DNA of 64,000 nt from Salipiger mangrovisoli (lineage in GTDB: Bacteria; Pseudomonadota; Alphaproteobacteria; Rhodobacterales; Rhodobacteraceae), in assembly GCF_015223355.1 (NCBI RefSeq), contig NZ_JADFFK010000006.1, positions 1-64,000 of the forward strand, in the 5' to 3' direction. The first letter of the stretch is position 1. Each line of letters begins with the position of its first letter. Position numbers and translations under genes: made by a program. Positions 16,222-20,667 of the stretch are shown here, piece by piece. The notes beneath the pieces were generated by a model. That model did not search any database. It worked only from the letters and a program-made list of their open reading frames with translations, and was not told the origin of the DNA.

Positions 16222-16719
16222 TTAGTGGTGGTGGTCGTGCGGATCGTCGAGCGCGCCGTGGATGGCGAACTGCTCGAGCCCGGCATCGCTGGCCTCGATC
16301 ACCCGGTAGCTCTCGCGCACCCCGGCGTCGGTCAGCTCGCGCGCGACGGTGAGCAGCGTGTTGGCGGCATGGTCCTCGCAGAGCTCGACCATCTGCGCCA
16401 GTTCCTCGGCGGCGACCGGACGCGCGGCCTCGACCGAAGGCGCTCCGTAGTAGGTCACGAAATGCTCCGCCAAGAGGTCGGTCAGCGCCTGCACCTCGGC
16501 GGGCTCGACATTGGTCACCGCGACAAAGGTCACCCGGCCGAAGGTCTCGAGCCCCAGCCAGCCGTTTGCAAAGGCCTGCCGCGCCTTTCCGGTGAGGTCA
16601 CCCTCGGTCCAGTTGGAGAACTCGAAGCCGCCCGAGATGCACCACTCGCCGGTGCGCGCGGGCGAGGCGAAGACACGGGTGTCGCTCTCGTCGAAATGGA
16701 TGGCGCGGGCGAGTTTCAT
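16222..16719 (-). CDS. DUF6505-type protein, formate dehydrogenase accessory
   Basis: A 165-residue soluble protein starting MKLARAIHFDESDTRVF, the beginning I associate with proteins annotated DUF6505 in Rhodobacterales. It ends in a histidine tail DDPHDHHH that could bind metal. There is no signal peptide, and it has cysteines at CISGG and ELCEDH. It lies 10 nt downstream of the DUF4444 gene in the left arm of the formate dehydrogenase divergon. The function is unknown. Co-location suggests maturation or assembly of the periplasmic formate dehydrogenase. Confidence 0.72.
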   Translation of the reverse strand: MKLARAIHFDESDTRVFASPARTGEWCISGGFEFSNWTEGDLTGKARQAFANGWLGLETFGRVTFVAVTNVEPAEVQALTDLLAEHFVTYYGAPSVEAARPVAAEELAQMVELCEDHAANTLLTVARELTDAGVRESYRVIEASDAGLEQFAIHGALDDPHDHHH

Positions 16720-16729
16720 GCGTGATCCT

Positions 16730-17440
16730 TCATGGCGCGGGCTCGAGCAGGGTGGTGAGCGGGATGAGGTGGGTGCTCTCGCCTTCGCGGAGCAGCATTC
16801 CGAAATCCTCGTCTACGCCGAGGAAGGTACCGGAGAGGCCGCCTTGCGTGACCTCCTCGCCAATGTCCTGTGCCAGCGCGCGCCATTCGGCGTGCAGCGA
16901 CCGGCCGCCCTCGTCTTCCCAGCGGTTGACCCAGTTCAGCGTGTGCCGCGCCCAGGCCTCGAGCAGCGCGGGCGGCTGGACCTCGGCGCAGCCCTCGGCG
17001 AAGAGCGAGGTCTGGTCGGGCGTGTCGCCGGGGCGGTCGCTGGCCGGGATGAGCGGCAGGGTGAAGCCGATCACCAGCCAGTCGGGCACCTGCGCCGGAT
17101 CGTCGGAGGCGGCCATGCAGCGGAAATGCCCGCAGGCGGCGCCGTTCACCCGGATGCCTCCGTCCCAACCCAGGTGCACGGCGACCTCGGGCGGCGCCAT
17201 GACGCCAAGCGCGTTCTGGAAGCCGACGCCACAGAGCGGCAGCATCGCCATCGCCTGCTTGAGCGGCACCTCGGGGGCGAAGACCAGCGCGCCCTCGAGC
17301 GTATCGGCGGTGATGCGATAGGCGACCAGCCCGGCATCGCAGCCCAGCAGGGCGCGTTGACAGGCGTGGTCGAAGGCATTGGTGGTCACCTCCTCGCCCC
17401 ACAGGAGGGGCGGGAAGGCAAGCGCATCGGTGGTGCTCAT
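16730..17440 (-). CDS. DUF4444 / biotin-lipoate ligase-like protein
   Basis: A 236-residue protein resembling the family annotated as biotin/lipoate--protein ligase with a C-terminal DUF4444 domain. N-terminal features include LPLLWGEEV-like start (PPLLWGEEVTTN), GVGFQNALGVMAPPEVAVHLGWDGGIRVNG and ADDPAQ-type loops, and the end carries an SH3-like GTFLGVDEDFGMLLR strand set. The classical ligase motif GRGRxG is absent, so ligase activity is doubtful. Its ATG overlaps the mrp stop (ATGA at 17437-17440), which indicates tight coupling with the Mrp ATPase. The role in the formate dehydrogenase locus is not known. Confidence 0.75.
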   Translation of the reverse strand: MSTTDALAFPPLLWGEEVTTNAFDHACQRALLGCDAGLVAYRITADTLEGALVFAPEVPLKQAMAMLPLCGVGFQNALGVMAPPEVAVHLGWDGGIRVNGAACGHFRCMAASDDPAQVPDWLVIGFTLPLIPASDRPGDTPDQTSLFAEGCAEVQPPALLEAWARHTLNWVNRWEDEGGRSLHAEWRALAQDIGEEVTQGGLSGTFLGVDEDFGMLLREGESTHLIPLTTLLEPAP

Positions 17441-18504: not shown

Positions 18505-18696
18505 TTACTCCTGTCCCTTGATCTCGCCCGTGACCTCATGGGTCAGGCCGAGCTCTTCGATGGTGATCACGGCCTTCACCGCGTAGCTCTTCCCGGCGGT
18601 TTCATTGCCACGCATGGCTTCCTCGATCGCCTGCTGCGAGGTCACCCCCACCTGCTTGAGGAATTTGCGCATGGACATGTTGAAATCGTCGCTCAT
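18505..18696 (-). CDS. DUF6494-type small protein
   Basis: A 63-residue protein. I chose ATG 18696 because GGGAGG lies 6 nt upstream; the frame continues to 18720. It begins MSDDFNMSMRKFLKQVG and contains TSQQAIEEAM and a beta-rich tail ending EVTGEIKGQE. This matches small proteins annotated DUF6494 in formate dehydrogenase loci. There are no cysteines. It is sandwiched between the poly-[4Fe-4S] gene (24-nt gap) and mrp (3-nt gap). The function is unknown. Confidence 0.75.
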   Translation of the reverse strand: MSDDFNMSMRKFLKQVGVTSQQAIEEAMRGNETAGKSYAVKAVITIEELGLTHEVTGEIKGQE

Positions 18697-18720
18697 TCTT
18701 GCCTCCCTGTGGCTCTGCAC

Positions 18721-20667
18721 TCAGTGATCGCGCCGCTTGCTGAGGTAGTCATCCGTGGTCCGGGGACGCGGACGCTCGCCGGCGGCAAACGGGTTGTCCT
18801 TGGCATGGTACTGCGCATTCACCCGGCAGTCGTCACACATCTGGATCATCCGCAGCTTGTCGCCGTCGAACATCGGATGGGACTGAAGCTTTTCGGTGAT
18901 CCGGTCAATGGTCGACTTGACGCCGAAGAGCGTGCCGCACTCGATGCAGGCGAAGGGCTCTTCCTCGTTGATCACGCGCTGCTCCAGCGCCTCCTCTGTC
19001 AGCAGCAGGCGCGGCTCGTAGGTGATCGCATCCTCCGGACAGACGTTGGCGCAGAGGCCGCATTGCAGGCAGGCGTCCTCCTGGAAGCGCAGCTGCGGAA
19101 GGTCGGGGTTGTCGCCAAGCGCGCCCGAGGGGCAGAGCGAGACGCAGGACAGGCAGAGCGTGCAGGCGTCGGTGTCGACCAGCACCGCACCATAGGGCGC
19201 ACCCTCGGGCAGCGGCAGGGTCTCGGCGCCGGGATGCAGCGCACGGGCCGCCTGCCGGGTGATCTGGCGGCGGGTGCCCATGGGGCGCACCGGCGTGGCG
19301 ACAGGTGCGGGGGCGGCCTCGGCGTAGAGCGTTTCGGACATGGCGTCCGGGTCGGAGGTCTGCAGCAGGATGACCCTGCCACCGCCGCTGATCGCGTCCG
19401 ACAGCGCCACCTGCGCCGCAAGCGCCGGAAGATCAGCGCCCGGCCCCGGCAGCACGGTCACCGAAGCGAAACCGGCAGCCAGCGCCGCGACGGTCTCGGC
19501 ATGGCCGAAGGCCCCGATGGCGCGGATCTCCAGCGGCACCACGTCGGCGGGCAGCCCGTCGCCGTGGCGCGCCGAGAGGCGGATCATCTCGGCTCCGTGC
19601 GCGTCGTGCACCAGAAGGCGCGGCGCGTGGCCACCCGCGTCGAGGAACGCCTTGGCGAGCGTCTGCACCCGGCGCATGGTCAGATCGACCGGCGGCGCGT
19701 CGTAGCTGATCGCGCCCGAGGGGCAGGCCGAGGAACAGGCGCCACAGCCGGCGCAGATCATCGGATCGACCGTCACATGCTCGCCGTCGGGCGAAATCGC
19801 CCCGGTCGGGCAGAGGTCGAGGCAGTTGGTACAGCCGGTCTTGCCCGCGCGCGAATGGGCACAAAGCAGCGACTCCAGCCGCACGTAGAGCGGCTTCTCG
19901 AAGGTGCCGACGAGGTGCGAGGCGGCCATGACCGCGGCCGCCACTGCCTGCGGACGGCCGGGATCGGCGCGCAGGTACCCCTCGCGCTTTTCATGCGCGG
20001 GGAAGAGCGGCGGGTCGCGGCGCAGGTCGAGGATCACGTCGCATTGCGACACGCCGCCGTCGCGCGGCTCGGTCAGGGTGAAGGCACCGCGCCCGCCGGG
20101 CTCGACCTGACGCAGCGCGTCGATCGTCACCCTGAACTGGCCAAGCGCGCCCTGCGCCTTGCGCAGCCGGCCGGTGATCACGTCGAAGGCGCGGGTGTCG
20201 GGCATCTCGTCGGCGCTGTCGAGCAGCACCGTGACACCGAGATGCGGCGCCAGCTGCGCGGCCGCCTCAAGCGCAACCTCGGGCGCACCAAGGATCAGGC
20301 AGAGCCCTTCGGAGATGACATCCAGCGTCTTCTCGGGTGCGGCGGGCAGCATGGCCTCTGCCGCGAGGGCGGACATTTTGGGTAGTTTGGTTGCATGATC
20401 GGCGCTCCATCCGGCCCGGTCGCGCAGGTCGAGCAGCGGTGCGGGCTCGGTTCCCAACTCCTCGGCCAGCGCCTCGAAGGTGCGGCTCTCCTGGGTGCAG
20501 CAGAGGACGACATTCCCCTGCGTCAATCCCTTGGCAGCGCGCTCGATCTGGCTGGTGCAGAGCGCCTTGCAGGGGGGCGTGACCTCGAATCCCGTGGCTT
20601 TGGCGAGTGCCTCGGCATCGATGGACTGCGTGCCCATACAATCACATGTTATCAAGGTCTTGGTCAT
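18721..20667 (-). CDS. Large poly-[4Fe-4S] ferredoxin-like protein, formate dehydrogenase-associated
   Basis: A 648-residue soluble protein from ATG 20667, which is preceded by AGGAAGGA. Four ferredoxin motifs are visible: CTNCLDLCPTG, CAGCGACSSACPSG, CTLCLSCVSLCPSG and CLQCGLCANVCPED. Further cysteines near both ends (CDC, PPCKALC, LCC; CIECG, CDDCR) could carry more metal. There is no signal peptide, so it acts in the cytoplasm. I do not know a tested function. Carrying at least four clusters next to Mrp suggests an electron-transfer or cluster-donor role in maturing formate dehydrogenase. It is the first gene of the left arm, divergent from DUF3305. Confidence 0.82.
   Translation of the reverse strand: MTKTLITCDCMGTQSIDAEALAKATGFEVTPPCKALCTSQIERAAKGLTQGNVVLCCTQESRTFEALAEELGTEPAPLLDLRDRAGWSADHATKLPKMSALAAEAMLPAAPEKTLDVISEGLCLILGAPEVALEAAAQLAPHLGVTVLLDSADEMPDTRAFDVITGRLRKAQGALGQFRVTIDALRQVEPGGRGAFTLTEPRDGGVSQCDVILDLRRDPPLFPAHEKREGYLRADPGRPQAVAAAVMAASHLVGTFEKPLYVRLESLLCAHSRAGKTGCTNCLDLCPTGAISPDGEHVTVDPMICAGCGACSSACPSGAISYDAPPVDLTMRRVQTLAKAFLDAGGHAPRLLVHDAHGAEMIRLSARHGDGLPADVVPLEIRAIGAFGHAETVAALAAGFASVTVLPGPGADLPALAAQVALSDAISGGGRVILLQTSDPDAMSETLYAEAAPAPVATPVRPMGTRRQITRQAARALHPGAETLPLPEGAPYGAVLVDTDACTLCLSCVSLCPSGALGDNPDLPQLRFQEDACLQCGLCANVCPEDAITYEPRLLLTEEALEQRVINEEEPFACIECGTLFGVKSTIDRITEKLQSHPMFDGDKLRMIQMCDDCRVNAQYHAKDNPFAAGERPRPRTTDDYLSKRRDH

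What the first reader, a model, noticed from the sequence alone, without database searches (positions are those of the whole stretch)
16222..20667. Uncharacterised five-gene maturation module beside formate dehydrogenase
The left arm links a 648-residue poly-[4Fe-4S] protein, DUF6494, an Mrp-type FeS-carrier ATPase, a DUF4444 ligase-like protein and DUF6505, with tiny gaps or overlaps. The combination has no assigned pathway that I know. It could be a dedicated FeS/cofactor insertion or electron-delivery system for the periplasmic formate dehydrogenase, and is the best candidate here for an undescribed system.
Basis: partly seen in the sequence, partly recalled or inferred. Interest (0 to 1): 0.75.

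Follow-up and report, generated by a model that had tools for sequence, protein, structure and literature searches.

The report
Formate dehydrogenase helper gene cluster
Beside a periplasmic formate-oxidising enzyme lies a set of poorly known genes, led by a relative of the methanogen electron-transfer protein HdrA, that is inherited almost only together with this enzyme and probably helps to build it before export.

Summary
The 648-residue protein (called FES here) is in 33 of 33 FDH3-positive and 1 of 208 FDH3-negative genomes of a 241-genome class sample; in a 148-genome phylum sample FES and FDH3 occur in the same 19 genomes. FES is more than a polyferredoxin: its model shows an HdrA-like fold (1-342), an MvhD-like fold (345-462) and a tail like formate hydrogenlyase subunit 6, with 24 cysteines invariant in 32 sequences; the flavin motif is degenerate and the MvhD part has no invariant cysteine. 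The ligase-like protein lacks the BirA lysine in 23 of 23 sequences. DUF6505 is in 21 FDH3 genomes and 2 others. DUF6494 (13 of 36 carriers lack FDH3) and Mrp are not FDH-specific. In Diaphorobacter FES lies between DUF3306 and TorD, followed by MobA. Best reading, inferred and untested: FES is a cytoplasmic maturation factor acting on FdhA before Tat export, NapF-like in role but not in ancestry. The complete five-gene order was seen mainly in Rhodobacterales.

The parts
18721..20667 (-). FES, 648 aa: HdrA-like (1-342), MvhD-like (345-462), tail like formate hydrogenlyase subunit 6 (about 490-620)
18505..18696 (-). DUF6494, 63 aa; not FDH-specific
17437..18501 (-). Mrp/ApbC-type P-loop Fe-S carrier, TTG start; paralogue of a copy at G000:C13:30051-31091 (60% identity)
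16730..17440 (-). Biotin/lipoate-ligase-like protein (PF16917 plus DUF4444 tail), lysine of the BirA KWPND motif absent
16222..16719 (-). DUF6505, 165 aa
21012..21575 (+). DUF3305, same genomes as FES in the class sample
21572..22210 (+). DUF3306
22210..22857 (+). TorD-like chaperone (Nitrate_red_del, PF02613)
22907..23101 (+). Small twin-arginine protein, 64 aa
23226..26204 (+). FdhA, molybdopterin catalytic subunit with twin-arginine signal
26217..26810 (+). FdhB, FDH3 beta subunit (NF038355 342.9 bits, cut-off 240)
26913..28145 (+). FdhC, cytochrome b561-type gamma subunit

Best explanation
The left arm is part of a dedicated assembly set for the FDH3-type periplasmic formate dehydrogenase. 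FES stays in the cytoplasm and acts on the FdhA precursor (or FdhAB) before Tat export, together with the TorD-like chaperone, DUF3305 and DUF3306. With five predicted cluster sites plus a four-cysteine tail it most likely donates Fe-S clusters, or low-potential electrons needed while clusters and sulfurated bis-MGD are put in; the Mrp paralogue would load clusters onto it or onto FdhA in lineages that have one. The ligase-like protein and DUF6505 act as a non-catalytic adaptor pair in the same assembly step. Shown: gene content, co-occurrence, operon partners, fold similarity, conserved cysteines, export signal on FdhA. Inferred: cytoplasmic location, the maturation role, cluster versus electron donation, the adaptor role.
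For: FES and FDH3 beta co-occur: 33 with both, 1 FES only, 0 FDH3 only, 207 neither of 241; the same 19 of 148 in the phylum sample (7 of these 19 are also in the class sample). Of 11 taxonomic families with both FDH3+ and FDH3- genomes, FES follows FDH3 in 10 (read). FES is still present when not linked: 26 of 33 have it in one fetched stretch with FdhA, 7 do not. Operon partners are assembly factors: DUF3305-DUF3306-FES-TorD-MobA in Diaphorobacter, with FdhABC divergent; DUF3305-DUF3306-FES-TorD-Tat-FdhABC in four genomes outside the class. Ligase-like, DUF6505, DUF6352, DUF3305, DUF3306, TorD and FdhABC are one strand-consistent run in Sinorhizobium and Bradyrhizobium. FdhA has a twin-arginine motif in 32 of 33 frames; the 33rd is cut at its N-terminus. 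Precedent: NapF, a cytosolic protein with four [4Fe-4S] motifs needed for Fe-S assembly in the Tat substrate NapA (passages of PMC10609526).
Against: No mutant or biochemical data. Four FES of the phylum sample lack the N-terminal four cysteines and have Val at one ferredoxin position, so the full cluster set is not indispensable. G107 has FES, DUF3305 and DUF3306 but no FDH3, and L299 has no FdhA within 9 kb. Ten of 33 FDH3 genomes show no ligase-like protein in the fetched loci and 12 lack DUF6505, so these are not essential to FDH3 everywhere. HdrA relatives are usually electron carriers in catalysis, not assembly factors. NapF itself is missing from some nap operons and has marginal effects in some species (PMC10609526).
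Confidence: 0.55

Rival explanations
1. FES is an electron carrier in catalysis: like HdrA-MvhD in methanogen Fdh-Hdr complexes it moves electrons between this formate dehydrogenase and a cytoplasmic partner.
For: HdrA-like and MvhD-like folds; top structural matches include a formate dehydrogenase - heterodisulfide reductase complex; strict co-occurrence with FDH3.
Against: FdhA carries a Tat signal, which puts the active site outside, while no signal or membrane segment is evident in FES (its highest 19-residue hydropathy, 1.65, falls in the ferredoxin part at residue 494). GxGxxG is in 0 of 32 and GxGxxA in 5 of 32; no invariant cysteine in the MvhD-like part. Gene order groups it with TorD and MobA.
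Confidence: 0.2
2. FES, the ligase-like protein and DUF6505 sense iron, oxygen or Mo/W state and regulate FDH3 synthesis or export rather than assembling it.
For: Fe-S rich and a pseudo-enzyme; a sensor kinase (14171-16138) and an NtrC-like regulator (29478-30944) flank the cluster.
Against: No DNA-binding or signalling domain in any of the three; embedded among assembly genes. The sigma-54 pattern is not enriched (7 matches, 11.89 expected).
Confidence: 0.1
3. No shared function: conserved neighbourhood of general Fe-S genes (Mrp, DUF6494) next to an FDH operon.
For: Holds in part for DUF6494 (13 of 36 carriers without FDH3) and Mrp (second copy).
Against: Does not explain FES, ligase-like and DUF6505, which follow FDH3 also where unlinked, e.g. 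G196 with FES, ligase-like, DUF6505 and DUF6494 about 580 kb from the FDH genes.
Confidence: 0.08

Closest known systems
NapF (periplasmic nitrate reductase maturation ferredoxin)
   Same: Cytosolic multi-[4Fe-4S] protein tied to a Tat-exported molybdoenzyme; precedent for Fe-S assembly before export (PMC10609526 passages).
   Different: Not the same family: TIGR00402 41.4 bits against cut-off 102.2. FES is far larger, HdrA/MvhD-like, and tied to FDH3.
HdrA (heterodisulfide reductase subunit A)
   Different: Much of the flavoprotein part absent, FAD motif degenerate; Foldseek TM about 0.2 over the whole chain.
MvhD-like electron-transfer subunit (5odc chain D; that this chain is MvhD is recalled)
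   Different: No invariant cysteine; no MvhD hit by sequence.
Formate hydrogenlyase subunit 6 (HycF, name recalled)
   Same: C-terminal ferredoxin and four-cysteine tail; 7z0t_F TM 0.70 by target length, 28% identity.
   Different: Only the C-terminal part of FES.
3bfm, biotin protein ligase-like protein of unknown function
   Same: Same family as the window's ligase-like protein, 262.7 bits.
   Different: Solved structure without assigned function.
TorD-fdhGHI operons with DUF3305, DUF3306, fer4 (Bay et al. 2015, PMC4464133)
   Same: Earlier report that these genes sit with TorD-associated fdh operons (passages).
   Different: In the passages seen: no co-occurrence test, no HdrA/MvhD assignment, no mention of DUF6505, DUF6494 or the ligase-like protein.

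Membership tests
FDH3 formate dehydrogenase | Beta subunit over NF038355 cut-off (240 bits) | tested here: met
   342.9 bits
FDH3 formate dehydrogenase | Formate-oxidising activity | not testable with these tools
   no assay
HdrA | N-terminal cluster domain with conserved cysteines | tested here: met
   C8, C10, C37, C57 invariant in 32 of 32; profile match to HdrA chains E about 1e-5
HdrA | FAD dinucleotide-binding motif GxGxxG | tested here: not met
   0 of 32 GxGxxG, 5 of 32 GxGxxA
MvhD | Fold | tested here: met
MvhD | Conserved cysteines for the [2Fe-2S] cluster (feature recalled) | tested here: not met
   no invariant Cys in 340-466
NapF | TIGR00402 over cut-off | tested here: not met
   41.4 bits against 102.2
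NapF | Needed for Fe-S assembly of the exported partner | not testable with these tools
   needs mutants
Biotin protein ligase (BirA) | Lysine of the KWPND motif | tested here: not met
   0 of 23 have Lys before the W/F (aligned to BirA)
Biotin protein ligase (BirA) | Shared fold or profile | tested here: met
   PF16917 256.3 bits; BirA chains E 1e-9
Mrp/ApbC | NF008669 over cut-off | tested here: met
   350.1 against 348
FdhE-type maturation factor | FdhE family match | tested here: inconclusive
   none among the window proteins scanned; some window genes and the rest of the genome not scanned

The most novel reading that the evidence does not exclude
FES is a repurposed, flavin-less heterodisulfide-reductase-type protein that feeds clusters or low-potential electrons to a molybdoenzyme during assembly instead of during catalysis, working with a dead biotin-ligase-like adaptor and DUF6505: a distinct, lineage-wide maturation pathway for FDH3.
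Probability: 0.25. Interest if true: 0.8.

Novelty: new variant of a known kind. Interest (0 to 1): 0.6.

Why it matters
Metal-dependent formate dehydrogenases are wanted for CO2 reduction, and missing assembly partners are a common reason why such enzymes fail in foreign hosts (my inference). If FES and its partners are needed for FDH3, the set to co-express is now named and can be tested. It would also show an HdrA-MvhD-type protein at work in enzyme assembly. The finding turns several DUFs (DUF3305, DUF3306, DUF6352, DUF6505) and a solved orphan structure (3bfm) into members of one testable pathway.

Tried and rejected
Five genes as one dedicated unit: rejected for DUF6494 and Mrp. In one search an ORF cluster lies within 5 kb of DUF6494 in G014, G023, G071, G072 and G168; one member (L136) matches Fer2_3/Fer4_17 and looks like SdhB, the other members were not scanned.

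MvhD by sequence: the profile of residues 340-466 found only apparently unrelated chains (best E 0.0041), so MvhD likeness rests on fold alone.

Sigma-54 control of the divergent promoter: 7 matches in the window, fewer than the 11.89 expected, none in 20668-21011. No sigma-70 promoter or terminator pattern in 20600-21100.

Single origin of module Mrp copies: not shown; the label needs 4 changes, and the rhodobacterial module group has support 81/89, not starred. Two rows were partial (275 and 310 aa) and G081's other copy is a flagged long branch.

Papers: 10 of 10 searches used. DUF6505/DUF6494/DUF4444: 0 papers. DUF6352/DUF6505/3BFM and one phrase: 1 unrelated paper. DUF3305/DUF3306: 2, one relevant. 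HdrA with MvhD, formate dehydrogenase, Proteobacteria, periplasmic: 4, seen as a listing only. Cupriavidus fitness study (PMC11540253, passages): fdh, fdo and fdw knockouts had no significant effect on formate growth because the soluble enzyme dominates; I did not test whether its fdh operon is FDH3-type.

Rows dropped before counts: two sub-cut-off DUF6505 matches, G076 and G170. FES alignment A1 used 32 of 35 sequences (L118, L120, L123 left out); A2 22 of 23 DUF6505 (L127, with an internal stop, left out); A4 20 of 36 DUF6494; A3 all 23. PF16917 over its cut-off is in 147 of 241 genomes; I took the 23 found by profile in fetched loci as the ligase-like group. All 24 genomes with a PF16917 match of at least 100 bits are FDH3+ (the 24th, G072, was not examined); that the weaker ones are true biotin ligases is assumed.
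Full report
Observation. The five genes are present as described, with gaps of 24, 3 and 10 nt and one 4-nt overlap. They are divergent from DUF3305, DUF3306, a TorD-like chaperone, a 64-aa twin-arginine protein and FdhA-FdhB-FdhC. FdhB passes the FDH3 beta model (342.9 bits, cut-off 240). The nearest annotated relative, Alloyangia pacifica, has the same order.

Phylogenetic profile. In one fixed sample of 241 genomes of the class, FDH3 beta is over its cut-off in 33, FES present in 34 at E up to 1e-25, DUF3305 in 34, DUF6505 in 23, DUF6494 in 36. FES and DUF3305 have the same set, FDH3 plus one genome, G107. 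FES: 33 with FDH3, 1 without; DUF6505: 21 and 2 (G101, whose frame has a stop, and G236); DUF6494: 23 and 13; ligase-like in fetched loci: 23 and 0. Fisher values assume independence and are only a guide. A better control: 11 families contain both FDH3+ and FDH3- genomes, and FES follows FDH3 in 10 of them; G107 breaks the eleventh (read). In a phylum sample of 148, FES (E up to 1e-40) and FDH3 beta (over cut-off) are in the same 19 genomes, 12 of them not in the class sample's positive set.

Gene order. FES shares a fetched stretch with FdhA in 26 of 33 genomes. Where it does not, it is still there: in G196 FES, ligase-like, DUF6505 and DUF6494 are together about 580 kb from the FDH genes. 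Ligase-like and DUF6505 are neighbours on one strand in 17 of 19 stretches holding both. In four genomes outside the class the order is DUF3305-DUF3306-FES-TorD-Tat-FdhABC on one strand. In G299 and G356 the arm is FES-Mrp-ligase-DUF6505 without DUF6494. In Diaphorobacter the run is DUF3305-DUF3306-FES-TorD-MobA, divergent from FdhABC, with FdhD nearby. In Bradyrhizobium ligase-like, DUF6505, DUF6352, DUF3305 and DUF3306 overlap by 4 nt each and continue to TorD, Tat and FdhABC; Sinorhizobium is similar. Among 80 genome-contig loci, the best of 463 matches, 48 have the full 12-gene order and 74 have FdhA; of the 6 without, 5 are cut by contig ends and one, L299, is not. In L249 the block DUF6494-Mrp-ligase-DUF6505 is inverted as a unit.

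Other members. The ligase-like protein belongs with 3bfm, solved and of unknown function; Lys of KWPND is absent in 23 of 23. DUF6505 has no clear structural match. Mrp: this genome has a second copy of 60% identity; 6 of 12 genomes examined have two copies. G081 groups with the rhodobacterial module copies while its other copy falls far away, which suggests transfer of the module, with the cautions given there. DUF6352 (one member confirmed) is in 19 class genomes' fetched loci, all FDH3+, but those loci were chosen for the module.

Mechanism. FdhA has a twin-arginine motif (32 of 33 frames, the other cut), so clusters and cofactor must go in before export (established for Tat substrates). 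The best precedent is NapF, needed for Fe-S assembly of NapA in Rhodobacter sphaeroides but nearly dispensable in some species (passages of PMC10609526). FES would do this for FDH3. Whether it gives clusters or electrons is open; electrons for the sulfuration step with FdhD are an idea of mine, not evidence.

Known before. Bay et al. 2015 (PMC4464133, passages) reported DUF3305, DUF3306, a fer4 gene and a Tat protein with TorD-associated fdh operons. The HdrA/MvhD nature of FES, its strict co-occurrence with FDH3, and the pseudo-ligase/DUF6505 pair were not found in the held library under the terms searched.

Noticed in passing
window 1670-14105: FdhD, a MoeA-containing 922-aa protein, a NuoE/NuoF-like fusion and an NAD-type molybdopterin FDH alpha subunit lie left of the module, so the window holds two formate dehydrogenases.
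   Followed up: partly
window 14171-16138 and 29478-30944: A Cache-domain sensor kinase and an NtrC-like sigma-54 response regulator flank the module and FDH3; possible two-component pair.
   Followed up: partly
window 28142-29425: WD40-repeat protein with a C-terminal cytochrome c domain directly after FdhC; possible electron acceptor.
   Followed up: no
window 32236-35635: Molybdate/tungstate-type ABC transporter (PBP_like_2, ATPase, permease) with an HTH-PBP regulator; a similar transporter is near the Sinorhizobium cluster.
   Followed up: no
L088:11801-12538, L089, L090, L087: Unassigned CxxCH-containing, apparently secreted protein between FES and DUF6494 in rhodobacterial relatives but not in the window.
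   Followed up: partly
G107, L118: FES, DUF3305 and DUF3306 without any FDH3 in a 98% complete genome: loss, missing contig or other partner.
   Followed up: partly
G053: Two FES copies and two FDH3 beta copies; G133 has two FDH3 beta and one FES.
   Followed up: no
G014, G023, G071, G072, G168 around DUF6494: An ORF cluster within 5 kb of DUF6494 in five genomes; the one member scanned resembles SdhB.
   Followed up: partly
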